37,922 nucleotides of DNA from NCBI GenBank assembly GCA_018816555.1, contig JAHIVT010000143.1:1-37922 (forward strand), given 5' to 3'. Shown here piece by piece: positions 8,348 to 23,820 of this stretch. The notes beneath the pieces are model-generated. The model made no database searches. It was not told the origin of the DNA and saw nothing but the letters and a program-made list of their open reading frames with translations. A program made the translations under genes and the position numbers. This DNA comes from Pseudomonadota bacterium. GTDB lineage: Bacteria > Desulfobacterota > Desulfobulbia > Desulfobulbales > SURF-16. Numbering within the stretch: position 1 is the stretch's first letter; each line of letters opens with the position of its first letter.

Positions 8348-8369
8348 TTCAGTATGTTATATTACTGAA
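8348..8369. promoter_or_regulatory. Perfect dyad TTCAGTA-N8-TACTGAA upstream of the hybrid kinase
   Basis: A 7-bp perfect inverted repeat in AT-rich sequence lies between lnt and the hybrid kinase, ending 18 bp before its ATG. Its size and position suit a dimeric repressor or autoregulator site, but a short hairpin is also possible. No regulator is assigned. Confidence 0.35.
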
Positions 8370-11496: not shown

Positions 11497-12592
11497 ATGT
11501 CTGCAGAACTGAAACAAAAACTCCAGGAAATTCAATTAAGGCTGATGGCCTTGAAGGAGCATCTTTGAATTAGCCGACAAGACAGAAAAATTGCGGGAAC
11601 TCGAGCAGAAAACCACTCATCCCGCCTTCTGGAACGATGCGGAAACGGCTAAAAATGTGCAGCAGGCAATCAGCCGGCTACAGGAGCCCATTGATGGTTA
11701 TGAGTCTTTAAACCACCTGATGGAAGACGCCGAGGTGCTGCTGGAGCTTGCCGTCAGTGAACAGGACGCGGAAACCGAGCAGGAGGCACGGCAGACCCTC
11801 AAAGTGCTGGATGAAAGAATTGCCGCCTTTGAACTGGAATGCATGTTTTCCGGTGAACATGATGCGAATAATGCCATGCTCACCATCCATGCCGGCGCAG
11901 GGGGCACGGAGGCACAGGACTGGGTCAGCATTCTGCTGCGCATGTATATGCGCTGGGCGGAAGATAAAGGCCTTACTGCGGAAATACTTGACTGGCAGCC
12001 CGGAGATGAGGCTGGGGTGAAAAGCGCCACCATCATGATCAAGGGACGCTATGCTTACGGCTATCTCCGTTCGGAAATGGGTATTCACCGCCTGGTGCGT
12101 ATTTCCCCCTTTGATGCCGGGGGCAGGCGCCACACCTCTTTCGCTTCGGTTTTTATCTTCCCCGAACTTGATGACACCATCGTGGTTGATATCAACGAAA
12201 AGGACCTGCGCATTGACACTTACCGGGCCAGCGGCGCCGGCGGCCAGCATGTCAACAAGACCAGCTCAGCCATCCGCATCACCCATCTGCCGACCAACAC
12301 TGTTGTCCAGTGCCAGAATGAACGCTCCCAGCACCGCAACAAGGACACGGCTATGAAGATGCTCAAATCGCGGCTGTATGAGCGGGAAAGGCTATTGCAG
12401 CGGGAGCAGCGCGACGAACTGGGAGGCGAGAAAAAGGAAATCGCCTGGGGCAGCCAGATCAGGTCCTATGTCATGCAGCCCTACCAGCTGATAAAGGATC
12501 ATCGTACCAATCATGAAACCGGCAATGTGGATGCAGTCCTTGATGGCGTCCTCGATCCGTTCATCAAGGCGTATCTGCTCTGGCAGAAGTGA
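11497..12592 (+). CDS. prfB: Peptide chain release factor 2, programmed +1 frameshift
   Basis: Frame 0 runs from ATG 11497 for 23 codons to an in-frame TGA at 11566-11568; the main frame then continues from 11567 to 12592. The junction reads AAGGAG-CAT-CTT-TGA, the classic internal Shine-Dalgarno plus CTT slip codon plus TGA. Joined, the product is 364 residues, the normal RF2 length. The product recognises UGA and UAA and triggers peptide release. Seen: the SPF anticodon-like tripeptide (RISPFDAGG), the catalytic GGQ (SGAGGQHVNKTSSAIR) and the conserved C-terminal HRTNHETGNVDAVLDG. The frameshift gives autoregulation: low RF2 slows decoding of TGA and favours slippage. Confidence 0.97.
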
Positions 12593-13833
12593 AAAAGACA
12601 GATAAACAGCAGGCAGCAGGTGATCAATGCGCCAAATGCGGAGCATGCACCGCTGTCTGCCCGGTTTATCAGGTAACCGGCCGTGAATCCCTCACCGCCC
12701 GGGGCAGACTGCATTTGTTGAGCCGCCTCACCAACCCCGCTTCCGCTGTCTTCGGCAAAATCGTCTCCGCCTGCCTACTGTGCGGCTCCTGCCTCGATGC
12801 CTGCCCCAGGAAAATCGACACCCTCTCCCCGTTGATCAGCGCCCGTGAGCAATTACCGCTGTCTGCCCGGCACCAGTTTCTGGAAAAGCTCGTGGCCAGA
12901 AAAACCCTTACCTCTCCCCGGCTGCTCGCAGGTCTTGCCGCCCTCCGACAAAAATTGCTGCACTACCTGCCGGAAACAAGCGGCCTGTGGCTGAAACTGG
13001 CTCTGCTGCCCGAGGACTTTTCACCAGAGGATACTCAGCCTCTCTTGCCTGCCGTCCAGCAGAACGGCGTTCAGCCTGCGGTCAGCTACTTCAGCGGCTG
13101 CCTGGCCCGCTATCTGAGCCCCGACATCAGCGCTGCCACCGATTTTCTCAGCCGCCGGGTTACCGGCAGCCCCTTGCTGATCCCAGGGGAGCAGGCCTGC
13201 TGCGGCCTGGCCTCTTTTGCCGCCGGCAGTAGAAAGGAGGCCCAGGACCTGGCCAGAAAAAACATCGCAGCCTTTGCCGGCAATGCCCTTCCTATCCTCA
13301 CCTCCTGCGCCTCCTGCTACAGCCACCTGCGCTCCTATCCCGTCCTGCTGGCCGATGACCCGCACTGGCGCGGACAGGCAGAGGATTTCAGCGCCAGGGT
13401 GCGGGAATTTTCCCGTTTTTTCCTGGAGGCCGGTCTTGCCCCACCCGTCGGCCCAGAGACTGGAGAGCCGGCGGATACTGCCGGCATTTTCTACCACGAT
13501 CCCTGTCATCTCCGCTTCGGCCCGGAAAAAATCATTGACCAGCCGCGCCGTCTGCTCAAAAATATCACTGGATCACCACCCCTGGAGCTTGCCGGCGGGC
13601 CGCACTGCTGCGGTCAGGGCGGACTTTTCCATATCGCCCATCCCCATCTGTCGCAGCAGATTTTAGCCGGCCCTCTGGCGCAATTTCTGGAACTATCGGC
13701 TTCCCATGTTGTCACAACCTGCAGTGGCTGCCTGCTGCAATGGCAGCAGGGATTAGGACAGGCCGGACTCCCTGACCGGGCATGCCACCTGGCGGTTTTG
13801 CTGGCCAGGATCATCCGGCAGAAAGGCGGATAA
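12589..13833 (+). CDS. GlcF/HdrD-like iron-sulfur oxidoreductase with two CCG domains
   Basis: 414 residues. N-terminal 2[4Fe-4S] ferredoxin-like region: CAKCGACTAVCP and CLLCGSCLDACP. Then two cysteine-rich (CCG) domains: YFSGCLARY ... ACCGLASF ... TSCASCYSHL and YHDPCHLRFG ... PHCCGQGG ... TTCSGCLLQW. This is the architecture of glycolate oxidase subunit GlcF, LldE-like proteins and heterodisulfide reductase HdrD. No flavin (GlcD-like) partner is adjacent, so the electron donor is not defined; oxidation of a 2-hydroxy acid such as glycolate or lactate is the usual role. Starts at a GTG (12589) overlapping the prfB stop by 4 nt (GTGA). Cytoplasmic: no signal peptide. Confidence 0.85.
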   Translation: MKKTDKQQAAGDQCAKCGACTAVCPVYQVTGRESLTARGRLHLLSRLTNPASAVFGKIVSACLLCGSCLDACPRKIDTLSPLISAREQLPLSARHQFLEKLVARKTLTSPRLLAGLAALRQKLLHYLPETSGLWLKLALLPEDFSPEDTQPLLPAVQQNGVQPAVSYFSGCLARYLSPDISAATDFLSRRVTGSPLLIPGEQACCGLASFAAGSRKEAQDLARKNIAAFAGNALPILTSCASCYSHLRSYPVLLADDPHWRGQAEDFSARVREFSRFFLEAGLAPPVGPETGEPADTAGIFYHDPCHLRFGPEKIIDQPRRLLKNITGSPPLELAGGPHCCGQGGLFHIAHPHLSQQILAGPLAQFLELSASHVVTTCSGCLLQWQQGLGQAGLPDRACHLAVLLARIIRQKGG

Positions 13834-13862
13834 AGGAACCCTGCGTCCCGCCTTGATCACCT
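13823..13862 (+). terminator. Possible weak terminator after the Fe-S protein gene
   Basis: AAGGCGG (13823-13829) pairs with CCGCCTT (13848-13854) across an 18-nt loop, followed after a few bases by a short T run at 13863-13867. The loop is long and the T run is offset, so function as an intrinsic terminator is uncertain. Confidence 0.3.
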
Positions 13863-13974
13863 TTTTCAAATCCTGTCAAAATAACAGTTGAAAATTATCA
13901 GCGGATCAAGAACAATTGTCGGCAACCAAACATATCTTGCCACTATCTCTTCCACTTATCTATCAGGAGGTTGT

Positions 13975-14835
13975 ATGAGAATAAAAACTTTTTTTCTAAC
14001 ATTTATCTGCGCCATGGGTATCTGCCTCACGGCACAGGCTGAGATTGATTCCGAGATCAGCAATTCCTTCAAGGCAGCCGATGCCCCTCTTGATCTTGCC
14101 AGTTCCGTTAACGGCAAATATGTCTTTGTTTTAAGCAAAGGCAGCGTGAGTATTTACACCAATGACGGCAAGCTGGAGGATGCCATTGCCGTTGATCCCT
14201 CCTTCAACCGCATTTCCGTCTCCGGGCTGGATCTGGCCAATCTTGAAGACAAAATTTTTCTCAGCAGCGAATCCACGGGTAAGGTGCAGGAACTGAGCTA
14301 TTCCTTTATTGTCTCCATCGACATCACCAATGCCCCTTTCCTCGGCATGCCCGAAGCCCCGGTATCCATTGTCATTTTCAGCGACTTTCAATGCCCTTAC
14401 TGCTCCAAACTCGGGCCGACCTTTGATGACATTCTGAAAAAGAATCCGGAAACCGTCAAAATCGCCTACAAACACTTTCCCATCCGTGGCCATGCCCAGG
14501 GTATGCCCGCCGCCATTGCCGCCATTGCCGCCCAGAAACAGGGGAAATTCTGGCAGTATCATGATCTTCTCTTTCAGAACATGAGAGATCTCAAGCCTGA
14601 GAAATACCTTGAATTGGCTACATCTCTCGGTCTGAACATGGATCAGTTCAAAAAAGAAATGGCTGATCCGCAGAGCATGGCCCAGGTCAACAAGGACCAG
14701 CAGGACGGCATCAGTGCCGGGGTGAAGGGAACACCTTCCGTTTTTATCAACGGCAGAAAAGTCAAAGACAGAACCGTTCCCGGCATGCAGAAACTCATTG
14801 ACGAGGAACTGGCCAAAATCAAGAGCCATCAATAA
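13975..14835 (+). CDS. Exported DsbA-family thioredoxin-fold protein with N-terminal extension
   Basis: 286 residues. ATG 13975 follows an excellent AGGAGG 5 nt upstream; the protein starts with a Sec signal peptide (RIKTFFLTFICAMGICLTAQA). Residues ~25-115 are a beta-rich region (GKYVFVLSKGSVSIYTNDG) of unclear fold, possibly a propeller-blade-like module. From ~118 to the end is a DsbA/thioredoxin domain: VSIVIFSDFQCPYCSKLGP with a CPYC active site, KHFPIRGHAQ, WQYHDLLFQN, and the cis-Pro loop GVKGTPSVFING. It probably acts as a periplasmic thiol oxidase or disulfide isomerase. The CPYC dipeptide resembles BdbD/DsbA-like proteins rather than DsbA CPHC. No DsbB is adjacent. Confidence 0.87.
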   Translation: MRIKTFFLTFICAMGICLTAQAEIDSEISNSFKAADAPLDLASSVNGKYVFVLSKGSVSIYTNDGKLEDAIAVDPSFNRISVSGLDLANLEDKIFLSSESTGKVQELSYSFIVSIDITNAPFLGMPEAPVSIVIFSDFQCPYCSKLGPTFDDILKKNPETVKIAYKHFPIRGHAQGMPAAIAAIAAQKQGKFWQYHDLLFQNMRDLKPEKYLELATSLGLNMDQFKKEMADPQSMAQVNKDQQDGISAGVKGTPSVFINGRKVKDRTVPGMQKLIDEELAKIKSHQ

Positions 14836-14842
14836 TTTCCCC

Positions 14843-15850
14843 ATGCTGAATACGGCCACACAGAAACAACTCTCTTTCACCGATAACGAAGCGGCCCGCC
14901 TGCTGTATGGCGACCTGAACCGCAATCTGCTGGCCATTGAAAAGGCGGTGGGAGTTACGGTCAAGGCCAGGGGAACGACCCTGACCATCTCCGGCCTTGA
15001 CCACGATGTAACAACTACCGCCGCCACCCTCAATCAGCTGTATGATCTCATCGTCACCGGCTATCCGATCTATGCGGCGGATGTGGCCTATGCGCTGAGA
15101 ATCATGGAGCGCTCACCCCAGACCAACCTGAAGGAAATCTTTCTCGATCAGGTCTATATCACGGCCAAGCACAGGATTGTCTCACCCAAGAGCATCAACC
15201 AGAAACTCTATATCGACGCCATCCGCAACAACGACATCGCCTTCGGCATCGGACCTGCCGGCACCGGCAAAACATATCTGGCCGTGGCCATGGCCATCGC
15301 CGCCTACAGCGCCAATCAGGTCAAATCCATCATTCTCACCAGGCCGGCGGTGGAGGCCGGTGAAAACCTTGGTTTTCTGCCCGGCGATCTGGTGCAAAAA
15401 ATCAATCCCTACCTGAGGCCGCTGCATGACGCCCTTAATGACATGCTCGGTCGTGAACGGGCCAAGGAACTGGAGGAACGGGAAATCATCGAGATCGCGC
15501 CTCTTGCCTTCATGCGTGGCCGCACCTTAAACAATGCCTTTGTCATTCTCGATGAGGCCCAGAACACCACCCCGGCGCAGATGAAGATGTTTCTCACCCG
15601 CCTTGGCTTTAATTCCAAAGCAGTCATAACCGGTGACATCACCCAGATAGACCTCCCCCACGACCGGGGTTCAGGACTGATCCACGCCTCCAGAATCCTG
15701 AAAAAAATAAAGGGAATCTCCTTCAGCTATTTCAGTGATGTTGACGTGGTTCGCCATCCCCTGGTGCAGCAGATTATACGGGCCTATGAAAAACAAGAAA
15801 AAAGTCACCTGAAAAAGGAGAAAGGTGATGCCCGTTCTGCTCAGAAGTGA
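14843..15850 (+). CDS. phoH: PhoH-like ATPase (YbeZ family)
   Basis: 335 residues. An N-terminal KH-like or small domain (~1-110) is followed by a P-loop ATPase: Walker A GPAGTGKTYLAVAMA, TRPAVEAGENLGFLPGD, Walker B AFVILDEAQNTTPAQM, and GDITQIDLPHDRGSGL. The family is a predicted RNA-associated ATPase working with YbeY. Here ybeY overlaps the 3' end by 23 bp, the same pairing as E. coli ybeZ-ybeY. Start chosen at ATG 14843, 8 nt after the preceding stop; a reading with an earlier start would overlap the DsbA-like gene and add non-family residues. Confidence 0.93.
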   Translation: MLNTATQKQLSFTDNEAARLLYGDLNRNLLAIEKAVGVTVKARGTTLTISGLDHDVTTTAATLNQLYDLIVTGYPIYAADVAYALRIMERSPQTNLKEIFLDQVYITAKHRIVSPKSINQKLYIDAIRNNDIAFGIGPAGTGKTYLAVAMAIAAYSANQVKSIILTRPAVEAGENLGFLPGDLVQKINPYLRPLHDALNDMLGRERAKELEEREIIEIAPLAFMRGRTLNNAFVILDEAQNTTPAQMKMFLTRLGFNSKAVITGDITQIDLPHDRGSGLIHASRILKKIKGISFSYFSDVDVVRHPLVQQIIRAYEKQEKSHLKKEKGDARSAQK

Positions 15851-16289
15851 AGTCAAACCACTGCCAGTCACCCTTGCCTGGTTGAAAAAAACCGCCACCG
15901 CACTGCTCAGGCATGCGGACAGGAAGCATTGTGAATTAAGCATCCTGCTGGTTGATGACAGCCGCATGACCGAGCTCAATACCACCTACCGGGGCATCAA
16001 CAAACCGACCAATGTGCTGTCCTTTCCCATGGCTGACGACCCTTCCTCACCTGCACCACACCTGCTGGGAGATATCGTTATTTCCCTCGATACCGCGGCA
16101 CGGGAGGCTCTGGCTTGTAGCATGACCCTGGAAGATTATATCTCCGTCCTGCTTGTCCATGGCCTTGTGCATCTACTTGGTTATGACCATGAGCTTGGAG
16201 AAGATGATGCCGAGGAGATGACGGCACGGGAAAAAGAACTGCTGCAGCAGTTGAGCGGCGCAAAGGTGCTTGCCCCTTTATCTGAATAG
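15828..16289 (+). CDS. ybeY: Endoribonuclease YbeY / rRNA maturation factor
   Basis: 153 residues. Zinc-dependent single-strand RNase involved in 16S rRNA 3'-end maturation and ribosome quality control. The three-His zinc motif HGxxHLxGYDH is seen as HGLVHLLGYDH near 115-125, with NTTYRGINKPTNVLSFPM and LGDIVIS upstream. ATG 15828 follows AAAGGAG with 7-nt spacing and overlaps phoH, indicating coupled translation. Confidence 0.95.
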   Translation: MPVLLRSEVKPLPVTLAWLKKTATALLRHADRKHCELSILLVDDSRMTELNTTYRGINKPTNVLSFPMADDPSSPAPHLLGDIVISLDTAAREALACSMTLEDYISVLLVHGLVHLLGYDHELGEDDAEEMTAREKELLQQLSGAKVLAPLSE

Positions 16290-16360
16290 GGGTATTTTAG
16301 GATCCGGGGAGAGTGTCTAAAGTACTTTAAGCACTTCAATAGATTATCTTGAGGGAAAAA

Positions 16361-17074
16361 ATGGTAAAGCTTGCCATAAACGTCGATCACGTTGCCACCC
16401 TGAGACAGGCCAGAGGCATTGACGAACCTGACCCGGTTCTTGCCGCCGGTATCTGCGAACTGGCCGGGGCGGCAGGTATTGTTGTTCACCTGCGGGAAGA
16501 CCGCCGCCATATCCAGGACAGGGATGTGATCCTCCTGCGCCAGACGGTTAAGACCAAGCTCAATCTGGAAATGGGGGCAGCCGAGGAAATCATCAATATC
16601 GCGCTCAATCTGAAACCGGATATGGTGACCCTGGTGCCGGAAAAAAGAGCGGAACTGACCACGGAAGGCGGCCTTGACGTCATCGGCCAGGAGCATCATC
16701 TCAGTAGTGTCATCGCCCAGATGACCGATGCCGGCATTCCGGTCAGCCTGTTTATCAATCCTGATACCGAACAGATCAAGGCAGCCAAAAGGGTTGGCGC
16801 CACCTTTGTTGAAATACACACGGGTCGTTACAGCGATGCGACAAGTGAAGTGGAAGAAAACAGGGAATTTGCCATGATTGTGGCGGCGGTGGATACTGCC
16901 CATGATCTGGGCCTGCGGATCAATGCCGGTCACGGTTTGAATTACCTGAATACGGCCAGGATTGCCGCGCTTGGCAAAATCGAAGAGCTCAGTATCGGCC
17001 ATGCGGTGATGGCCAGGGCCATCTATGTGGGACTGGACCAGGCGGTGCGGGAGATGCGCGCCCTCTGCTGCTGA
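16361..17074 (+). CDS. pdxJ: Pyridoxine 5'-phosphate synthase
   Basis: 237 residues, the family length. Condenses 3-amino-2-oxopropyl phosphate (1-amino-acetone 3-phosphate) with 1-deoxy-D-xylulose 5-phosphate to give pyridoxine 5'-phosphate in DXP-dependent vitamin B6 synthesis. Seen: [16 protein letters not shown] at the N-terminus, [14 protein letters not shown] (phosphate/substrate site), [28 protein letters not shown], and [10 protein letters not shown] ... [14 protein letters not shown] 16361 was preferred over an upstream TTG because the conserved VKLxINVDHVA begins here. Follows ybeY in the same direction with a 71-bp gap. Confidence 0.96.
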
Positions 17075-17095
17075 ATAAATGATTCCTGCGGTATG

Positions 17096-17521
17096 TCACC
17101 TGAAGCTTGAGTACGTGCCGCCGCCGGCTACCAGAGGGGAAACATAACACTCACCCCGGCGTATCCTGTCCACCGCTATATAGAGCTCCGTATCGGCATT
17201 TTCTTTGAGCAGATACCCTTCCGCCCCGGCGGCCAAAACATAATCCACGTATTCCTTTTCCCTGTGCATGGTCAGAATCAGAATTTTTACGTTCGGATAG
17301 ACCATTTTTATCTCACGGGTTGCGGCCAGCCCATGATGATTGGGCATGGAGATGCCCCAGATCACCATATCAGGCGGCTCTTTTTGAAAAAAATCAAGGA
17401 GCCTCAGGTCGTCCCCCGCCTCCCCGATTACCTTCAGTCCTCCTGCACCTTCGAGAAGATCCTTTACGCACTGGCGAAACATGGCATGATCATCTGCCAA
17501 TAATATACGATACGCGCCCAC
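17096..17521 (-). CDS. Degenerate orphan receiver domain lacking phospho-acceptor Asp
   Basis: 141 residues, receiver fold only. It is clearly a paralogue of the NarL-type regulator at 18836-19498 (shared LADDHAMFRQ, ATREIKM, KILILTMH, AGAEGYLLKE, ADTEL). The acidic pocket (Asp10, Asp11) and Lys (LLKE) remain, but the phospho-acceptor position reads MVIWGISMP: Gly56 replaces the Asp of VILDISMP. The LuxR-type helix-turn-helix is gone; the frame stops after GGGTYSSFR with no HTH remnant before pdxJ. Begins with GTG (17521) after a GGGGGA stretch. It may act as a phosphorylation-independent decoy or partner of the kinase/regulator pair, or be a decaying duplicate. Convergent with pdxJ. Confidence 0.75.
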   Translation of the reverse strand: MGAYRILLADDHAMFRQCVKDLLEGAGGLKVIGEAGDDLRLLDFFQKEPPDMVIWGISMPNHHGLAATREIKMVYPNVKILILTMHREKEYVDYVLAAGAEGYLLKENADTELYIAVDRIRRGECYVSPLVAGGGTYSSFR

Positions 17522-17572
17522 TATCAGTTCCCCCAGTCCATAACTCTCTCATTGCCTTGCCTCACCCTGGTC

Positions 17573-17614
17573 AAAACGAAACAGGCCCCCCGGCAAATCC
17601 GGGAGACCTGTTTC
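17573..17614 (-). terminator. Strong hairpin, likely intrinsic terminator of the repeat-protein gene
   Basis: On the minus strand GAAACAGGTCTCCCGG pairs with CCGGGGGGCCTGTTTC across a 5-nt loop. The stem has 16 bp with two G-U wobbles that are only allowed in the minus-strand RNA, followed by GTTTTG. It lies between the repeat-protein gene and the orphan receiver gene. Confidence 0.6.
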
Positions 17615-17774
17615 ATGCAGCCACTCGGGAGCCCTGAATGAATGTTGCGCGAAATCGCTGCTAGCCTGTTGTGCCGTGCCTTACGGCGACACGGCTGAAC
17701 ACTCTGTCTTTAGAAAATATCCTATTCGCTGTTCACTCAGGATTCCCACTAACCAAGCTGAAAACTAAGACCTA
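17615..17774. other. Intergenic sequence with a second hairpin
   Basis: Non-coding stretch downstream of the repeat-protein gene. It holds a GC-rich hairpin (GCCGTG 17673-17678 with CACGGC 17690-17695, inner GCC/GGC). I compared it by eye with the cyclic-di-GMP riboswitch pattern and saw no match. Confidence 0.4.
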
Positions 17775-18284
17775 TCAGCCCAGAATCATATTGACACTGA
17801 CCGTGCTGTAGTCCAGACAGGAGCCGTCTCTTAACCGATCCGGAACTCCGTCTCCTGTTCCGTCGCGCAGTTGATCTTGACCGTCAGATACAATAAATCT
17901 GCCGCTTACATCCGTGCTGTAATCCAGGCAGGAGCCGTCTCTTAACCGATCCGGAACTCCGTCTCCTGTTCCGTCGCGCAGTTGATCTTGACCGTCAGAT
18001 ACAATAAATCTGCCGCTTACATCCGTGCTGTAGTCCAGGCAGGAGCCGTCTCTTAACCGATCCGGAACTCCGTCTCCTGTTCCGTCGCGCAGTTGATCTT
18101 GACCGTCAGATACAATAAATCTGCCGCTCATATCCGTGCTGTAATCCAGGCAAGAGCCATCTTTAAGCTGTTGTTTATCTTTAATACAATCCCGGTCCCG
18201 GTCCTGGTCATCAGCAACTGCAGCACCTGGGAGAGTTACGAACATGAATGCCGTTGTCATGAGAATAGCTGTACGTTTAATCAT
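17775..18284 (-). CDS. Exported protein of tandem 37-residue TSP3-like repeats
   Basis: 169 residues. Sec signal peptide (MIKRTAILMTTAFMFVTLPG, cleavage near AVA-DD), then an acidic region and about 3.4 copies of a 37-residue repeat, RDGSCLDYSTDVSGRFIVSD plus GQDQLRDGTGDGVPDRL. The repeat contains DGTGDGVPD, which resembles the calcium-binding thrombospondin type 3 motif (DxDGDGVPD), and one cysteine per repeat. At DNA level the copies are 111 bp and almost identical, implying recent expansion. ATG 18284 follows AAGGCGG. I do not recognise a named family; a secreted or periplasmic calcium-binding or structural role is inference. It follows the sensory operon on the same strand and could be its target. 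Confidence 0.75.
   Translation of the reverse strand: MIKRTAILMTTAFMFVTLPGAAVADDQDRDRDCIKDKQQLKDGSCLDYSTDMSGRFIVSDGQDQLRDGTGDGVPDRLRDGSCLDYSTDVSGRFIVSDGQDQLRDGTGDGVPDRLRDGSCLDYSTDVSGRFIVSDGQDQLRDGTGDGVPDRLRDGSCLDYSTVSVNMILG
17821..18160. repeat. 111-bp near-identical tandem repeats (3+ copies)
   Basis: The word GAGCCGTCT recurs at 17821, 17932 and 18043, with a diverged copy (GAGCCATCT) at 18154: exactly 111 bp each time. The three downstream copies differ by only a few bases, and the fourth (5' end of the gene) is more diverged. All units are in frame. Confidence 0.9.
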
Positions 18285-18835
18285 CTGTTTATCCGCCTTA
18301 AAAATTGTCTTAGGTTAATTTCTTTGTGTTACCCGAACCATTCGGGTGCCCATACCGGGCATGCCATGCTGCCTTCAGCCCCCAACTACCTCATTTCAAG
18401 TATCTCCCCCATGCGATACTTCCGAGTGCCGACGCAGATCGAAAAAATAAAAATTGTGTTCTCCTCTTCCTCACCTCCTAGCCGAATTTGTCCGCTTCCT
18501 TGCCGGGCTCCAATGGCGGAAGGCGAACAGTCTTTTTGGGGGCGGCTGTTTCCGTAATTCATTGTTGATTTCCACCGGAATAAAAAGCATCAAACCGGTG
18601 AATTTTCACGTTGCCGCAAAAGCAAATCAGGATCTCCGGAGCCGCAGGTTTGGAACCATTCTTACGGAATTATTCTCAAACCCAAGAGGTCCTCGTCTGT
18701 ATGCAACAATACGCTGTTAAGGCCAGGGAAACAATCCGGCGAACTACTCAAGACTTAATCAGATTAACTACCTATTGACGGCTGAGTATTACTACCTAGA
18801 AGTGAGATAATGGCATGTTTTTAAAGGATTTTTCT
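18285..18835. other. 551-bp intergenic region upstream of the repeat-protein gene
   Basis: No credible gene on either strand. It contains a perfect hairpin ACCCGAA-CCA-TTCGGGT at 18331-18347 and, on the minus strand, an isolated TAGGAGGTGAGG at 18470-18481 without a good start. Its length suggests that the repeat-protein gene has its own promoter and regulatory region rather than being read through from the response regulator gene. Confidence 0.5.
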
Positions 18836-19498
18836 TTATTTGGTGGACAGAATGTAGCCCTTGTTCAGGGCATATTTTACCAGATTGGCGGTTTGTTTGA
18901 TGTTCAGCTTGCGCATGATATTGGCGCGATGATTTTCCACGGTGCGGATACTGATAAAGAGCAGATCGGCAATCTCCTTGTTGGAGATCCCCTCGGCAAT
19001 CAGCTTCAGGACTTCCCGTTCACGGGTGGTCAGAGGATCGGACAGGGAAGACATCTCCCCCTTGTGGGAGGCCTGCACCATATCAAAGGCAAATTCCCCG
19101 GACAGGAGCGGGGAGATGTAGCAGCCATTGTCCCTGATCTTTTCGATGGCGGCAAAGAGTTCCGTATCCGCATCTTCCTTGAGCAGATATCCTTCCGCTC
19201 CGGCTGACAGGGCGGAATAAACGTAATCCTTGTCCTTGTGCATGGTCAGGATCAATACCTTCACATCGGCGGAGATCATTTTAATTTCCCGGGTTGCCTC
19301 AAGCCCGCGAAGATGCGGCATGGAGATATCCAGAATCACCAGATCAGGGGTTCCCTGGCGTAAAAGATCAAGCAGCATAAGGCCATCGCTCGCCTCCCCG
19401 ACAACCTCAAGGTCCTCGACAGTTTCGAGAATATTCTTGATACCCTGACGGAACATGGCATGATCATCGGCCAGTACAATACGATACGGCGTCATCAT
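18836..19498 (-). CDS. NarL/FixJ-type response regulator
   Basis: 220 residues. Receiver domain (acidic pair Asp11-Asp12, phospho-acceptor Asp57 in VILDISMP, Thr in LILTMH, Lys in YLLKE), then a LuxR-type helix-turn-helix (LTTREREVLKLIAEG, SNKEIADLLFISIRTVENHR). It should be phosphorylated by the adjacent kinase and then bind DNA. Start: ATG 19498 has GAGG 7 nt upstream; a GTG at 19510 overlapping the kinase stop (GTGA) is the alternative and adds four residues. Third gene of a binding protein-kinase-regulator operon. Confidence 0.94.
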   Translation of the reverse strand: MMTPYRIVLADDHAMFRQGIKNILETVEDLEVVGEASDGLMLLDLLRQGTPDLVILDISMPHLRGLEATREIKMISADVKVLILTMHKDKDYVYSALSAGAEGYLLKEDADTELFAAIEKIRDNGCYISPLLSGEFAFDMVQASHKGEMSSLSDPLTTREREVLKLIAEGISNKEIADLLFISIRTVENHRANIMRKLNIKQTANLVKYALNKGYILSTK

Positions 19499-19506
19499 CG
19501 GTTTCC

Positions 19507-21303
19507 TCACTCATTTAAAGGAAGGGTAAAGCTGATTCTGGTGCCTGTCCCTTGACGGCTCCAGACATCGAGAGATCCTCCCAGCATGCGGACCCGCTCG
19601 TTCATGGCTGAGAGTCCCAGGCCATATTTAGCGTGGTCCCGCCCATAGGCATCCTGCACATCAAAACCCTGGCCGTCATCCTCCACCCGGAAGAAAAAAC
19701 TGTCCTTCTGCCTTCTGAGAGTGACCGCTACATGACTGGCTTTGGAGTGCTTTGCTATGTTGGTAAGACATTCCTGCACGATCCGGTACACGGTAATCTT
19801 CTGGTCACGGGAAAAAAGCCCGTCAAGCTCGGTCATATCCAGGGAACAGGTGATATTATAAAGCTTACCGGATGATTCCACAAGTCGGCGCACGGCGATA
19901 GTCAGCCCCAGATCCTCCAGAATAGAGGGACTGAGGTCCCGGGACAGGCGGCGGACGTTTTCCGTGACCTCATTGATGTAATTGATCACGGCATCACACT
20001 CTTTTTTGAGGCCTGTCTCAGCGTCGCCCCAGGTCCTCTGGATGGCCCGCACCTTGAGTTTCAGCACCATCAGCGACTGTCCCAGTTCGTCATGGAGTTC
20101 CACGGAAAGTCGCCTGCGTTCTTTTTCCTGGGCGGTAAGGATCTGGGCGGACAGGAAGCGGAGTTCCTTCTCGGACTGACGGAGCGCCTCCTCCGCCTTC
20201 CTGCGTTCGGTGATGTCACGGGCAATGCCGACGACTCCCTCTATTCCCCCCTCTTTATCTTTCAGTACAGCGGCTGAAAAAAGCATGGGCACACTGGTGT
20301 CATCCTTGGCCAGATAGTCTATTTCCAGATTAATAATTTTTTCTCCGGCGAGCACCTGCCGAAATCCCGATTCACTGAAAAATATCTCTTCCAGGGGAAG
20401 AATTTTATGTATATCCCGGCCGATCAGTTCATCCGCCTCATAGCCGAGAAGCTCACAGGTCGCCTTGTTCACGCTGCTGATCCTGGAATCCCGATCAAGC
20501 ACCACCAGGGTATCGTTCATGCTGCCGATAATGTTATCAACATAATCTCTGGAGATGGTCGTTTTCTGCAGATTCTCCGTCATTTCGTTAAAGGAATTGG
20601 CCAAAGCGCCGATCTCATCGTTTCTTCTGATGGTCAACCGGGTAATGAGATCGCCTGCGGCCACTTTGCCGGTGGCATCGGTTATCTTTTTGATCGGCGC
20701 AGCGATAAAGGCAGCCAGCAGATAGGCGGAAATACCGCCGATAAGAATGGTTACCACACCCATCAGGAAAATCTGTCGCCGAGCGCTGGCAATTTCCTTT
20801 TCAACCGCCATATAGGAATATCCCAGCCGGACCGTTCCCAAGCGGGCATCTTCAAGGGAAATGGGGGTATAGATATCGTAATAGTGTTCCCCGCTGTCAG
20901 GCAGGGATGCCTGGAAACTGCCATGTTTCTCGGACTTCATCGCCACGGCGGTCATGCTGTCCCGGTAGATTTTGCCGACTTCCTTCAGGTCACTGTGCAT
21001 CACCACCTTACCCTGCGGGTCAAGCAGGATGACGTAACGGACATAATCCTGCTCCATGGAGTGATTGACAAAACGGCGAAGAGTCGGCAGGTCGTTGCTT
21101 AACATGGGGCTGGTGGTAAATTTGGCCACATCGGCGGCTAGCGCCAATCCCCGTTTGCGCAACTCGCTTTCCAGGCTTTCCTTTTCCCGCATGGTGGTGA
21201 TAATACCGGTAACCACGACAATGATCACCACCAGACTTTCAATCAGCAGGGTAAGTTTGATGCGTAAGCTGAATTTCACCCATTGTTGCGGGTTGAGTTC
21301 CAT
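19507..21303 (-). CDS. Sensor histidine kinase, HAMP-PAS-HisKA_3 (NarX-like)
   Basis: 598 residues. Transmembrane helix ~16-38; periplasmic sensor of ~140 residues (single-Cache-like, YVILLDPQGKVVMHSDL); transmembrane helix ~178-200; HAMP ~201-253; PAS ~255-370 (NDTLVVLDRDSRISSVNKAT ... GIARDITERRKAEEAL); HisKA_3 with ERRRLSVELHDELGQSLM (His404); HATPase_c (DDGQGFDV, GLGLSAMNERV). It should phosphorylate the regulator encoded directly downstream (stop/start overlap). Encoded 7 nt after the PhnD-like binding protein, which is probably its ligand-sensing accessory. Confidence 0.93.
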   Translation of the reverse strand: MELNPQQWVKFSLRIKLTLLIESLVVIIVVVTGIITTMREKESLESELRKRGLALAADVAKFTTSPMLSNDLPTLRRFVNHSMEQDYVRYVILLDPQGKVVMHSDLKEVGKIYRDSMTAVAMKSEKHGSFQASLPDSGEHYYDIYTPISLEDARLGTVRLGYSYMAVEKEIASARRQIFLMGVVTILIGGISAYLLAAFIAAPIKKITDATGKVAAGDLITRLTIRRNDEIGALANSFNEMTENLQKTTISRDYVDNIIGSMNDTLVVLDRDSRISSVNKATCELLGYEADELIGRDIHKILPLEEIFFSESGFRQVLAGEKIINLEIDYLAKDDTSVPMLFSAAVLKDKEGGIEGVVGIARDITERRKAEEALRQSEKELRFLSAQILTAQEKERRRLSVELHDELGQSLMVLKLKVRAIQRTWGDAETGLKKECDAVINYINEVTENVRRLSRDLSPSILEDLGLTIAVRRLVESSGKLYNITCSLDMTELDGLFSRDQKITVYRIVQECLTNIAKHSKASHVAVTLRRQKDSFFFRVEDDGQGFDVQDAYGRDHAKYGLGLSAMNERVRMLGGSLDVWSRQGTGTRISFTLPLNE

Positions 21304-21310
21304 GCCTTCT

Positions 21311-22222
21311 TTATCGTCCTTTCACGGAAGCAGCGCTTCTATCTGATCTTTTTTCACCGATAAGTTCCCGCATTTCATCATAATGCTTATCCGTTGTCCG
21401 CTGAAATCCCCCCACTTCAGCAGAGTAAAGGATTTTGGCATGTTCAGGATTACTGTTGTTTAGTTTCAGCAAGGCACGGTCGAACTTGGCGATAAGCGCA
21501 GGGTCCAAGTCCTTGCGGGCGGCAAATACCCTGGTCGGCACCCATCTGGTGATGGCAATGATGTGAAGATCCTGGGCGTTGACCCCGAGTTCCCGCTGTT
21601 TTTTGGCATGCTCCCCAAGATAATGGTCGCACACCACTCCGGCATCAAAGGCCTTGAGAAACACATTGAAGAGGATATCCTCACAGCAGCCGCCATTGGC
21701 ATACATCGACAGATCTTTGTCAATGTCAATGCCGTTTTCTTCAAACAGCATTTTCGCCACCACCCATTTGGAGGCCGAAAGCTTGGAGCCGAACATGACG
21801 GACTTGCCGATCAGATCCTTCATTGTGTTAATATTGCTGTCCTTCCTGGCAACGATGGCGCCGGACTGGTAGATGCCTCCTTTCAGGCTGAGAGCCCGCA
21901 GCAGGGTCTTTTGGTCATAGAGCCCGGCAAATTTCACGTACACATTGGGGTCCTGGAAAACAAAATCGATATCTTTATTCATGATCTGGGCCTCGAATTC
22001 CGCGGCATCCGGGGGGAACACCAGTTTGATCTCCGTCCCGGTTTCCGCCTGCAGATAGGTGACCAGCGGATGGAATTTTTTAAAGCTCAGCACCTCGTCA
22101 CTGCAGGGTGAAACGGCGATAACAATCTTCTCTCCGTCCTCTTCGGCAGAACTTACGCCGGCCAGCAGGCAGAAAAAAAACATGAACACCCCAACTCTAT
22201 TAACCAATTTCCTGATCCCCAT
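21311..22222 (-). CDS. PhnD-like periplasmic binding protein, probably sensory
   Basis: 303 residues. Sec signal peptide, then a phosphate/phosphonate-type (PhnD) binding-protein domain: IVIAVSPCSDE, FHPLVTYLQAETGTEIKLVF, DIDFVFQDPNVYVKFA, GAIVARKDSNINTMKDLIGK, FDAGVVCDHYLGE. PhnD usually has an STSG loop and GxHDAA; here these read SKLSASKW and GGCCEDI, so the ligand is unlikely to be a simple phosphonate. The double Cys is striking. No permease or ATPase is nearby; instead it heads an operon with a kinase and a regulator, so it probably delivers ligand information to the kinase. ATG 22222 has GAGG with 7-nt spacing. Confidence 0.85.
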   Translation of the reverse strand: MGIRKLVNRVGVFMFFFCLLAGVSSAEEDGEKIVIAVSPCSDEVLSFKKFHPLVTYLQAETGTEIKLVFPPDAAEFEAQIMNKDIDFVFQDPNVYVKFAGLYDQKTLLRALSLKGGIYQSGAIVARKDSNINTMKDLIGKSVMFGSKLSASKWVVAKMLFEENGIDIDKDLSMYANGGCCEDILFNVFLKAFDAGVVCDHYLGEHAKKQRELGVNAQDLHIIAITRWVPTRVFAARKDLDPALIAKFDRALLKLNNSNPEHAKILYSAEVGGFQRTTDKHYDEMRELIGEKRSDRSAASVKGR

Positions 22223-22436
22223 ATTCAAACCTCTTTCAACTGATACAGCGAATTATCCTTACAGCTTTACTTACAAAAAATCTGTCTCCAACTATAACAC
22301 GTATTTCTCACCTGTATTGTTGCGATAAACCAAAAAATTTCCAATTTTAATGTATCATAAAATTTCCCGAAGATGTCCTCTTTTTCGTTGCCCTCCTTTT
22401 ACAACGGCATATGCAGGCTTTTCTCTCATAGACAAC

Positions 22437-22463
22437 CAAAATGAAAAATACCCTTCATTTTTG
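22437..22463. promoter_or_regulatory. Dyad CAAAATGAA-N8-TTCATTTTTG, possible activator site
   Basis: Inverted repeat of nine bases (one inserted T) about 115 bp upstream of the sigma-54-type promoter, the usual distance for an enhancer-binding protein site. Function is inferred from position only. Confidence 0.3.
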
Positions 22464-22577
22464 TCATGTTTGCTGCAAAATTGGCCGACTGTATTCCGCT
22501 TACCGTTGCTAGTTAATTCGCCGCACCAACACATTTAACATACTGATATTATAATAAATTGATTAAAATTTATACGT

Positions 22578-22593
22578 TGGCACTAGGTTTGCT
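22578..22593 (+). promoter_or_regulatory. Sigma-54 (RpoN) promoter candidate
   Basis: TGGCAC-TAGGT-TTGCT matches the -24/-12 consensus (TGGCAC-N5-TTGCW) at every defined position, with GG and GC exactly 12 bp apart. Predicted start near 22605, about 175 bp upstream of the first ModE-type gene. Confidence 0.55.
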
Positions 22594-22741
22594 ATCATTC
22601 TTTTTCAACATGGCCGAGTCAATTTTTTTTAACCGTCCTCCCGGATTTATTAAAAAATATGCTGAGCCAAATTCTGCGGCTGGTTCTGTGCTGTTACTCT
22701 GTTTATCGGTGCCAACCGCAGTAAGGTTTCGGCTTGTCATT

Positions 22742-22765
22742 CGTTATGTATATTATTATATATCG
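22742..22765. promoter_or_regulatory. ModE-box-like palindrome before the first ModE-type gene
   Basis: CGTTATGTA-TATTAT-TATATATCG: half sites related by dyad symmetry (7 of 9) with a 6-bp spacer, like the CGNTATATA-N6/7-TATATAACG pattern of E. coli ModE. It ends 15 bp before the ATG, so binding would block transcription or translation initiation (autorepression). Confidence 0.5.
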
Positions 22766-22780
22766 ACAAAAAGGAGAGAA

Positions 22781-23128
22781 ATGATGAAAAGAGCATGCAT
22801 GAAACCGCCAAGCTGCTGTGTGATTGTCGAACTGGAACAGGGAGCATTTCTGGGGTACCGAAGGGCCGTGCTGCTGGACGAGATCCAAAACCGTGGCTCG
22901 CTGTCGCAAGCAGCCAAAGCAGCCAAAATCCATCAGGAACATGCGCTTCATCTCCTGACCGAGATGAACGTTTCCTTCCATACCCCGCTGGTTTACTTTC
23001 AGGAAAACAGCATGGAAACCGACAGCGCCCGACTCACGGAGACGGGCAAAGAAATGGTCCGCTCCTACTGGAACAAATTTGCAAGCGCCTGGACATCCAT
23101 TACCGAGGAACGAAGCAAACATTATTAA
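22781..23128 (+). CDS. ModE-type winged helix-turn-helix protein, divergent (no molybdate domain)
   Basis: 115 residues. Matches the N-terminal DNA-binding domain of ModE: GAFLGYRRAVLLDEIQNRGS, SLSQAAKAAKIHQEHALHLL, then RLTETGKEMV. No MOP (molybdate-binding) domain follows. Compared with the second ModE-type protein (31447-31824), the recognition helix SYRHAWDLVDSMN reads HQEHALHLLTEMN, and the glycine-rich basic wing (GGRGGGGAK) is replaced by FQENSMETDSA. DNA specificity is therefore likely different or lost. ATG 22781 or 22784 (the latter has better spacing from AAGGAG). First gene of the uptake cluster, preceded by a ModE-like palindrome. Confidence 0.8.
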   Translation: MMKRACMKPPSCCVIVELEQGAFLGYRRAVLLDEIQNRGSLSQAAKAAKIHQEHALHLLTEMNVSFHTPLVYFQENSMETDSARLTETGKEMVRSYWNKFASAWTSITEERSKHY

Positions 23129-23164
23129 ACCATCATCCCGTAAACGACAACAAAGGAGATCGTT

Positions 23165-23656
23165 GTGAACTCTGAACTGAAATCCAGCAACAACAGGGAA
23201 TCCGGGCATAGTGCGGATTACGCACTTTGCATATGCGGCAGGGTGACAACGCCTCTGATGCTCGACATTAAAGAGCTTCGGGGCATGGAACCCGTGGAGA
23301 CGGATGAACTTCCCATGATTTGTGGTAACGGCGATCCCAAGGGCTGTATCGGTCGCTGCCGGGGCGTTCTGCTTTCAGACATTATCAACAGAGCCGATAT
23401 CCTGATAACAGGCCACAATGATACGCGGAAAATGTTCATCGTCGCCTCATCGGACGACGGGTACAAGGTGGTCTTTTCCTGGCAGGAGATCTTTAATACG
23501 CCGACAGGCGAAGGCATCATGGTCCTGCTTGAAAAAAACAGCAGGTCCCTTTATGACGAGCAGGGGGCGGTTGACCTTGTCTCAGCCCGGGATTTTCTGA
23601 CCGGACCGCGGTATGTCAGACAGCTCAAGACCATCGAAATCGTATTGATGGCTTAA
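23165..23656 (+). CDS. Small SUOX-fold (molybdopterin oxidoreductase-like) protein
   Basis: 163 residues. Resembles the stand-alone sulfite-oxidase/YedY-type molybdopterin-binding fold: CICGRVTTPLMLDIKELRGM, RGVLLSDIINRADI, IVASSDDGYKVVFSWQEI, GIMVLLEKNSRSL, FLTGPRYVRQLKTIEIVL. It is much shorter than catalytic family members, has no signal peptide, and the cofactor-cysteine region reads PMICGNGDPKGCIGRCRG (three Cys). Whether it binds molybdopterin, a metal or nothing is unknown. GTG start (23165) after AAAGGAGAT. Follows the ModE-type gene by 36 bp and probably shares its transcript. Confidence 0.65.
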   Translation: MNSELKSSNNRESGHSADYALCICGRVTTPLMLDIKELRGMEPVETDELPMICGNGDPKGCIGRCRGVLLSDIINRADILITGHNDTRKMFIVASSDDGYKVVFSWQEIFNTPTGEGIMVLLEKNSRSLYDEQGAVDLVSARDFLTGPRYVRQLKTIEIVLMA

Positions 23657-23667
23657 TTTTTTTTACA

Positions 23668-23695
23668 TTCGTTATTCTTTTTTGTATATAGCGAA
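23668..23695. promoter_or_regulatory. Second ModE-box-like palindrome, upstream of the receptor gene
   Basis: TTCGTTATTCT-TTTTTG-TATATAGCGAA: outer dyad TTCGYTAT/ATAGCGAA with a 6-bp spacer. It lies 12 bp after the SUOX-like stop and 125 bp before the receptor ATG. A further TATAGCGAA half site follows at 23703-23711. Confidence 0.45.
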
Positions 23696-23778
23696 ATATT
23701 CTATAGCGAAGACAGAATAGAAGAAAAATAGTTTCAACCAGCTGACCAGACTCGCTTATCTTTTATTTTTTTTATTTA

Positions 23779-23795
23779 TCGTTATGCATATATAA
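23779..23795. promoter_or_regulatory. TCGTTATGCATAT motif 42 bp upstream of the receptor start
   Basis: TCGTTATGCATAT (23779-23791) is identical in 12 of 13 positions to TCGTTATGTATAT at 22741-22753, which sits at nearly the same distance (40 bp) before the ModE-type gene. This suggests a shared regulator. Confidence 0.5.
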
Positions 23796-23820
23796 ACACA
23801 ACCATTGGGAGGTTTTCGTC

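What the first reader, a model, noticed from the sequence alone, without database searches (positions are those of the whole stretch)
17775..18284. Exported protein made of almost identical 111-bp repeats with TSP3-like calcium motif
Three downstream copies are almost identical at DNA level, including silent sites, so expansion is recent and copy number is probably variable between strains. DGTGDGVPD suggests calcium binding, and a single cysteine per repeat could give disulfide-linked fibres. It lies downstream of the sensory operon on the same strand, with a long upstream region of its own.
Basis: partly seen in the sequence, partly recalled or inferred. Interest (0 to 1): 0.6.

Follow-up and report, generated by a model that had tools for sequence, protein, structure and literature searches.

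The report
Secreted cysteine-repeat output of envelope signalling
A small exported protein built from near-identical repeats, each with one cysteine, belongs to an undescribed family in sulfur-cycling bacteria whose genes mostly sit beside, and often carry candidate promoter sites for, one of three unrelated envelope-sensing switches, so it is probably what those switches turn on.

Summary
In detail: 17775-18284 (-) encodes 169 aa, a signal-like N-terminus plus 37-aa units (111 bp, 95.5-99.1% identical in DNA). The TSP3/calcium label is not supported: no Pfam or NCBIfam model reaches its cut-off, and acidic D-x-D-x-D-G-like motifs occur in 12 of 29 family proteins or fragments. Shared features are one cysteine per unit (usually D-G-S-C), acidic/Gly linkers and a short apolar stretch.

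The main finding lies around it. Of 22 genomes of the order with such a gene, 20 carry it next to a signalling module: (A, this window) PhnD-type sensor + histidine kinase + NarL regulator; (B) kinase + NarL regulator; (C) ECF sigma + putative anti-sigma. Candidate sites: three GTAGT boxes 24 bp apart (A), a GTAGGA-N5-TCCTAC palindrome (B, perfect in 2 of 5), GTAAC-N16-CGTT (C, 8 of 10 genes). Within one genus, close orthologues sit beside module A, beside module C, or alone with the ECF-type promoter nearly intact.

Best reading: a dedicated, quickly re-arranging exported output of extracytoplasmic sensing. Its biochemical job (thiol/metal/sulfur binding, matrix, or signal) is undetermined; AlphaFold gives no confident fold.

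The parts
17775..18284 (-). REP gene: exported DGSC-repeat protein, 169 aa
   Evidence: only match in its genome at E<=1; purifying selection against G003
18213..18284 (-). signal peptide (codons 1-24), read by eye
   Evidence: 98.6% DNA identity with G001 over these 24 codons
17801..18166 (-). 111-bp tandem array, 3.3 copies
   Evidence: TRF; unit identities
17829..18161 (-). three full 37-codon units phased on D-G-S-C (18051-18161, 17940-18050, 17829-17939); a partial unit follows
18743..18795 (-). array of three GTAGT boxes spaced exactly 24 bp, candidate NarL-regulator sites
   Evidence: seen in G000, G001, G003 and, with one changed base, G004; the only match in each of those four genomes and none in the other 6 searched
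18320..18433 (-). conserved 5' leader block with a hairpin at 18331-18347; function unknown
   Evidence: conserved in G001 and largely in G004; only chance-level Rfam matches on 17000-19600, none here; leader 18285-18480 folds no better than shuffles, z -1.04
18836..19510 (-). NarL-type response regulator (receiver + GerE HTH)
   Evidence: Pfam Response_reg and GerE
19507..21303 (-). sensor histidine kinase (sCache_3_2, HAMP, PAS, HisKA_3, HATPase)
21311..22228 (-). PhnD-family periplasmic binding protein, nearest solved relatives PtxB (phosphite) and ArrX
   Evidence: Pfam PF12974 5.8e-44; PDB phmmer
17096..17521 (-). degenerate receiver without HTH, phospho-accepting Asp replaced by Gly
   Evidence: omega 0.03 between G000 and G001
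17577..17615 (-). long hairpin (with G-U pairs) between REP and the degenerate receiver, candidate transcription stop
   Evidence: stem seen in the rejected mir-934 match; not listed by the terminator scan

Best explanation
The gene encodes an exported, low-complexity repeat protein (signal peptide, then units of acidic/Gly linker + one Cys + short apolar stretch) that is the dedicated transcriptional output of the signalling module beside it. In this window a PhnD-type binding protein detects a ligand outside the cytoplasm and passes it to the sCache histidine kinase, which phosphorylates the NarL-type regulator; this binds the three GTAGT boxes just downstream of its own gene and activates the repeat gene. 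Relatives do the same with a kinase/NarL pair or with an ECF sigma factor. Shown here: gene, repeats, module adjacency, conserved or shared candidate promoter elements, exchange of modules. Inferred: export, phosphotransfer, binding and activation. Guess: outside the cytoplasm the Cys/Asp units act as a binding or sacrificial polymer (thiol or metal chemistry) made on demand; unit number and type are free to vary because only a repetitive, Cys-bearing chain is needed.
For: Adjacency: 20 of 22 genomes of the order with a true match have the gene next to a module; on a slightly different set, 18 of 21 lie within 3 kb of a GerE or sigma-70 region-2 domain against 0.40 expected (which corrects), and 11 of 12 with one genome per genus (0.23 expected). 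Sites: A, the three-box array is the only match in each of four genomes and always lies in this gap; G051 of another family keeps two boxes 24 bp apart after its NarL gene. B, palindrome GTAGGA-N5-TCCTAC perfect upstream of the gene in G006 and G569 and in none of 13 A or C loci scanned, imperfect in G570 and G512. C, GTAAC-N16-CGTT upstream of 8 of 10 repeat genes, at spacing 16 only of 10-23; 20 sites in 118,058 bp of C loci against 1 in 233,243 bp of A/B stretches. On 18 ECF loci not used to find the motif it occurs in 17 and faces a small exported Gly/Asp-rich Cys protein in 10. Module exchange in genus g27: G606 ECF operon; G051 PhnD-kinase-NarL with a scar of the ECF operon's last gene; G042 no module but GTAAC-N16-CGTA starting 105 bp upstream. 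Repeat gene, degenerate receiver and PhnD orthologue are all absent in same-genus G005.
Against: No expression, binding or export data. The A boxes lie 459-511 bp from the start codon, so a long leader or a second promoter must be assumed; in G051 a PilZ-like gene lies between. The reversed control of the three-box pattern has 10 chance matches in the same 10 genomes, so only the position carries weight. B: one of five (G489) has no palindrome, two are imperfect. C: two of ten repeat genes (G606, G434) lack the promoter directly upstream and would depend on the operon in front; the one motif hit among A/B loci lies before the kinase gene of a B module (G569). G042, G453 and G314 genes have no adjacent module; G002 has a second copy (C250) with none in the stretch read. 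12 of 29 ECF loci show no such gene facing the motif within the flank (some cut by contig ends). The thiol/metal part rests on composition alone.
Confidence: 0.62

Rival explanations
1. Multi-copy signal precursor: the repeats are cut after the apolar 'L-A-A/G' stretch into Cys-bearing peptides that the neighbouring periplasmic sensor (or anti-sigma) detects, so module and repeat protein form a feedback loop rather than only sensor and output.
For: Unit design with an 'xLAAD'/'xLAGN' junction resembling the end of a signal peptide in many relatives (by eye); recurrent partnership with sensors of three kinds; near-identical units, as in multi-copy precursors.
Against: Close repeat orthologues pair with unrelated sensors within one genus; unit sequence differs strongly between species whose kinase proteins are 97.8% identical, which a specific ligand would not easily allow; no dedicated protease or exporter was recognised beside it.
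Confidence: 0.12
2. Structural surface or matrix protein: Ca2+-stiffened, disulfide-linked fibres made under stress.
For: Signal-like N-terminus, repeats, one Cys per unit, acidic motifs in part of the family; PilZ-like genes (motif by eye) beside it in G051 and G606.
Against: No match to TSP3, curli or RTX models in Pfam; calcium-like motif in only 12 of 29 proteins or fragments; AlphaFold mean pLDDT 38, no fold (shallow alignment of 10). The PilZ-like proteins have no Pfam match.
Confidence: 0.22
3. Neutral or weakly used low-complexity gene that expands by slippage; its place beside the regulator is inherited synteny only.
For: Repeat type and number change quickly while the neighbouring module genes are 94-96% identical in DNA.
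Against: Omega about 0.09 between units of G000 and G003; the partnership recurs with three unrelated modules in 11 of 12 sampled genera; promoter-like elements are shared with the ECF operon.
Confidence: 0.07

Closest known systems
AioX/ArrX-type periplasmic sensor + kinase + regulator systems (and ThsSR/TtrSR with PhnD-like sensors)
   Same: PhnD-family binding protein encoded with a histidine kinase and a response regulator; best PDB matches are PtxB (E 1.2e-8) and ArrX (E 5.6e-8). AioX as first component of a signalling system: start of the abstract of PMC5908839, seen in the search listing only. Sensor kinases with PhnD-like domains (ThsS, TtrS): passages of PMC5408782.
   Different: No arsenic, tetrathionate or thiosulfate enzyme was recognised among the genes at 11591-25839 (most names by eye; the rest of the window was not annotated); the product next to it is a repeat protein. 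Ligand unknown. In ThsS/TtrS the sensor domain is part of the kinase; here it is a separate protein.
ECF sigma factor / anti-sigma operons (modules of relatives)
   Same: Sigma70_r2/r4_2 protein, overlapping second gene, the same promoter pair in front of operon and target in several loci.
   Different: The second gene carries a C-terminal AMPK1_CBM domain in the one scanned and the target is a Cys-repeat protein; none of the papers listed joins AMPK1_CBM with ECF factors, judged by counts and titles.
GacA/UvrY box TGTAAG-N6-CTTACA (one passage of PMC3171408 seen)
   Same: Inverted repeat of the same kind (GTAGGA-N5-TCCTAC) upstream of B-type repeat genes beside NarL-type regulators.
   Different: GG/CC instead of AG/CT in the half sites and one base more between them; binding not tested.
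TSP3 calcium-binding repeats
   Same: DGTGDGVPD here and DRDNDGICDGDG in G004 look like Asp-rich calcium loops (motif recalled, by eye).
   Different: No Pfam match; 17 of 29 family proteins or fragments lack the motif; the commonest conserved element is D-G-S-C.

Membership tests
TSP3 (thrombospondin type 3) repeats | match to the Pfam TSP_3 profile | tested here: not met
   not among Pfam matches at E<=1 for P0001 or at E<=0.1 for 8 relatives
TSP3 (thrombospondin type 3) repeats | calcium loops D-x-D-x-D-G in register in every repeat | tested here: not met
   pattern D-x-[DNST]-x-D-G in 12 of 29 family proteins or fragments
Curli or RTX repeat proteins | match to their Pfam profiles | tested here: not met
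   no such family listed
AioX/ArrX-type sensor modules (window module A) | PhnD-family periplasmic protein | tested here: met
   PF12974 5.8e-44; ArrX among best PDB matches
AioX/ArrX-type sensor modules (window module A) | encoded together with histidine kinase and response regulator | tested here: met
   same in G001, G004, G010, G051 and, as far as its contig reaches, G003
AioX/ArrX-type sensor modules (window module A) | binds an arsenic oxyanion and controls an arsenic enzyme | not testable with these tools
   no arsenic enzyme recognised at 11591-25839; ligand unknown
ECF sigma/anti-sigma module (relatives, type C) | sigma-70 regions 2 and 4 only | tested here: met
   L108:6725-7210; region 2 is just below Pfam's cut-off there (23.2 of 24 bits)
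ECF sigma/anti-sigma module (relatives, type C) | second gene is an anti-sigma factor that binds the sigma factor | not testable with these tools
   inferred from position; only an AMPK1_CBM domain was recognised
Sec-exported proteins | N-terminal signal peptide, export shown | tested here: inconclusive
   signal-like N-termini by eye in the window protein and in the full-length relatives printed; no predictor or experiment

The most novel reading that the evidence does not exclude
A new class of exported effectors: modular, one-cysteine-per-unit polymers that several unrelated extracytoplasmic signalling systems (oxyanion-type sensor + kinase + NarL regulator, kinase/NarL pair, ECF sigma) have independently or by exchange taken as their main output, and whose unit number and type are re-shuffled within a genus. 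In sulfur-cycling bacteria such a thiol array could buffer reactive sulfur, oxidants or metals outside the cytoplasm.
Probability: 0.3. Interest if true: 0.78.

Novelty: new variant of a known kind. Interest (0 to 1): 0.6.

Why it matters
It turns an anonymous repeat ORF into a protein family with a testable role: no Pfam or NCBIfam model reaches its cut-off for the members scanned, and three text searches of the open-licence PMC library found no paper with its motifs or setting. Exchange of whole signalling modules around one conserved output is a clear case for studying how regulatory systems are rewired, and the candidate promoter elements give ready reporters for what Desulfobulbales-type bacteria sense outside the cell.

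Tried and rejected
TSP3/calcium, curli, RTX: no profile match. PHROGs: nine weak matches of unknown function, best E 7e-5 without a passing stretch, taken as chance on a repetitive protein. The 5' leader as a riboswitch: no Rfam family, fold z -1.04; left open. Structure: AlphaFold mean pLDDT 38.4, pTM 0.17; no fold search was made on it. PDB sequence search with the repeat protein: best E 0.036, a de novo protein. Mobile element idea: no match in plasmid or phage collections (low-complexity filter on). Removed before counting: G560 (PAS kinase with 'RKDGSC'), G153 (judged an ORF of another reading frame), Frankia L034 (likewise). G314 (L025: Cys motif and a GPGDGTG tail, no module found) and G453 (L024/L039: repeats, no module found) lie outside the order; G453 is a miss in the adjacency count, G314 was not in that set. 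G068 (stops inside) was not followed.

Adjacency count: yes/no values were entered by hand from coordinates, with the rounded genome sizes printed there. One search took G546 as a hit, but one search lists no sigma domain on that contig (its ECF gene was found by BLAST); one search corrects 19 to 18 of 21. For genus g27 the genome with module A (G051) was taken, not G042. The set leaves out G002, G004 and G545. Motifs A, B and C were first seen by eye in the loci themselves; the first box was written GTAST so that G004 fits. No shuffle test was made for A or B.

Full report
OBSERVATION. The ORF at 17775-18284 (-) is real: 169 aa, signal-like N-terminus, and a 111-bp tandem array (TRF 17801-18166, 96% match). 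Three full units phased on D-G-S-C are 95.5, 96.4 and 99.1% identical in DNA. It is the only match in its 4.93-Mb genome. Between one unit of this genome and two of relative G003 there are 17-17.5 synonymous and 10-10.5 non-synonymous changes (omega about 0.09, rough because synonymous sites are near saturation), so the unit is a selected protein and not chance reading.

NOT TSP3. P0001 has six Pfam matches at E<=1, all below their cut-offs, and none is TSP_3, curli or RTX; its one NCBIfam match (CcmE, 23.4 bits against a cut-off of 221) is far below threshold. For eight relatives nothing reaches a Pfam cut-off either (best 23.6 of 27 bits). Among 29 family proteins or fragments (two of them the wider Gly/Asp type, and split genes counted as two) an acidic D-x-[DNST]-x-D-G motif occurs in 12; all 29 have at least two cysteines in the mature part, often 25-41 residues apart. 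In G004, same genus, the units have lost D-G-S-C and carry the Cys inside DRDNDGICDGDG instead. The constant design is: acidic or Gly-rich linker, one Cys, short apolar stretch ending in LA/LAG. AlphaFold gives mean pLDDT 38, so nothing can be said of its fold.

FAST TURNOVER. Against G001, the module genes are 93.7-96.3% identical in DNA (degenerate receiver 95.5, NarL 95.4, kinase 96.3, PhnD 93.7; pdxJ beyond is 89.9) and the signal-peptide codons 98.6%, but cross-species units are 76.8-88.5% (gaps left out), while the last three units inside G001 are 94.9-98% alike. Number and type of units differ: 4, 6 and 5 DGSC/DDSC motifs in G000, G001, G003. These are species, not strains, and contigs of G004, G002, G546 and G489 end inside the gene, so copy numbers may be understated.

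WHERE RELATIVES ARE. Of 97 genomes searched with the full protein, 8 match at E<=0.01, its own included; among them 4 of the 5 other genomes of the genus. A unit profile matches 23 of 257 genomes of the order at E<=0.01, own included, one false (G560), so 22. In a thin sample of the phylum it matches 7 of 395, own included, one false (G153). A scan of one genome for each of 84,980 species for D[RK]L[RKG]DGSC[LKV] gave 43 stretches, 5 confirmed by tblastn: two titled Desulfocapsa, one Desulfobulbaceae, one 'Proteobacteria bacterium' (the contig of G001), and a Frankia one that I judge a reading-frame artefact. No match in plasmids or phages.

NEIGHBOURS. This is the core result. Type A: PhnD-type protein, kinase and NarL regulator beside the repeat gene in G000, G001, G003 (its contig ends before PhnD), G004, G010 and, in another family, G051. 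Type B: kinase + NarL regulator in G006, G489, G512, G569, G570. Type C: ECF sigma, putative anti-sigma (AMPK1_CBM in the one scanned), small lipoprotein-like protein and periplasmic Gly/Ser-tailed protein in G090, G498, G501, G502, G545, G546, G557, G579, G606, and in G434 outside the order; not all four genes fall inside every fetched stretch, and in G557 one gene lies between. That is 20 of 22 genomes of the order; misses are G042 (a GerE kinase 3.9 kb away, nothing nearer) and G002 (gene split over contigs, second copy without module in the stretch read). GerE and sigma region-2 matches are few (2-16 and 3-9 per genome). Within 3 kb of such a domain: 18 of 21 observed against 0.40 expected (misses G042, G453 and G546, whose ECF gene the Pfam search did not list); one genome per genus, 11 of 12 against 0.23. 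Independence is limited by descent; the genus count is the fairer one.

SITES. A: three GTAGT boxes exactly 24 bp apart follow the NarL stop codon in G000, G001, G003 and, with one base changed, G004. Searched in 10 genomes, this three-box pattern has one match in each of these four, always here, and none in the other six; the reversed control pattern has 10 chance matches, so the pattern is not rare by itself and the weight lies in the position. G051 keeps two boxes at 24 bp after its NarL gene; G010 has degenerate ones at the same spacing. B: GTAGGA-N5-TCCTAC perfect in 2 of 5, imperfect in 2, absent in 1; the perfect form is in none of 13 A or C loci scanned. It resembles the GacA/UvrY box quoted in one passage of PMC3171408. 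C: GTAAC-N16-CGTT lies upstream of 8 of 10 repeat genes and within 250 bp of 4 of 8 ECF genes, at no other spacing from 10 to 23; 20 sites in 118,058 bp of ten C loci against 1 in 233,243 bp of 17 A/B stretches, some overlapping; that one lies before the kinase gene of G569. The motif was found by eye on these loci, so it was tested on others: an anti-sigma query matched 57 of 257 genomes (loci capped at 30, best first). Of the 29 loci opened besides the query, 28 have the motif and 17 have it facing a small exported Gly/Asp-rich Cys protein; of the 18 not seen before, 17 and 10. So the D-G-S-C proteins look like one branch of a wider set of ECF-controlled exported Cys proteins. Other genes behind the same motif include a di-haem cytochrome c peroxidase-like protein in G546 (Pfam CCP_MauG) and, by similarity of sequence, G090: a hint of a redox theme.

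MODULE EXCHANGE. In genus g27, close orthologues of the repeat gene are found after the ECF operon and next to a PilZ-like gene (G606), after PhnD-kinase-NarL and PilZ-like (G051), or without a module (G042). G051 has, between NarL and the PilZ-like gene, a remnant (GGSSGGSNGGSGGYEGR, stop) of the Gly/Ser tail of the ECF operon's last gene, in a 116-bp stretch 82% identical to G042's ECF locus, followed by the PilZ-like gene at 88%. G042, whose ECF operon lies on another contig (L112), keeps GTAAC-N16-CGTA starting 105 bp before its repeat gene. The regulator is replaced and the output stays: this favours output over specific ligand.

MECHANISM. Shown: gene, repeats, neighbours, conserved sites, exchange. 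Inferred: the PhnD-type protein (closest solved relatives PtxB and ArrX) senses an oxyanion-like ligand, the sCache kinase and NarL regulator transmit it, the regulator activates the repeat gene from the three boxes with a long leader; the protein is exported by Sec. The biochemical role is a guess: one Cys per unit in an acidic chain suggests thiol or metal chemistry outside the cytoplasm. In the same genus, G005 lacks repeat gene, degenerate receiver and PhnD orthologue together, as expected for a functional cassette.

NOVELTY. No curated family reached its cut-off, and no paper was found with the motifs or the setting (library is open-licence PMC only). Its parts (two-component systems, ECF factors, exported repeats) are known kinds; the combination and the family are new to the sources searched.

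Noticed in passing
window 17096-17521 (-): Receiver-only protein with the phospho-accepting Asp replaced by Gly (VIWGISMP) and no HTH; kept in G001, G002 and G004 with the same change, omega 0.03 (G000/G001). Possibly a phosphate-independent partner of the kinase/NarL pair. Not found in G003 or G005.
   Followed up: partly
window 18320-18433 (-): 5' leader block highly conserved between G000 and G001 and largely in G004, with a 7-bp hairpin at 18331-18347 and an AAGTATC/GATACTT inverted repeat; no Rfam family.
   Followed up: partly
window 22559-25839 (+): ModE-like DNA-binding protein, small Oxidored_molyb-like protein (below Pfam cut-off) and TonB-dependent receptor, divergent from the PhnD operon: might be a molybdate/oxyanion uptake and control locus.
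   Followed up: no
L036 2556-3311: Scar of an ECF-operon gene tail between NarL and PilZ-like genes in G051, evidence that one signalling module replaced another around the same output gene.
   Followed up: yes
L117 4500-5561 and L118 (motif at 8351, - strand): Di-haem cytochrome c peroxidase-like genes behind the same GTAAC-N16-CGTT promoter (Pfam checked for L117 only): the ECF regulon may respond to redox stress.
   Followed up: partly
L127, L128, L132, L138, L139, L140, L147, L149: A larger set of exported Gly/Asp-rich proteins (GPGDGTG...GDC...LLARGGNG) divergent from ECF genes, with no Pfam or NCBIfam match at E<=0.1 (five of the eight scanned in both libraries).
   Followed up: partly
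L015 (G002:C250): Second repeat gene of G002 with TTACTACCTA (reverse complement of the box TAGGTAGTAA) upstream, on a contig that also holds a di-haem peroxidase and a DUF2202 protein.
   Followed up: partly
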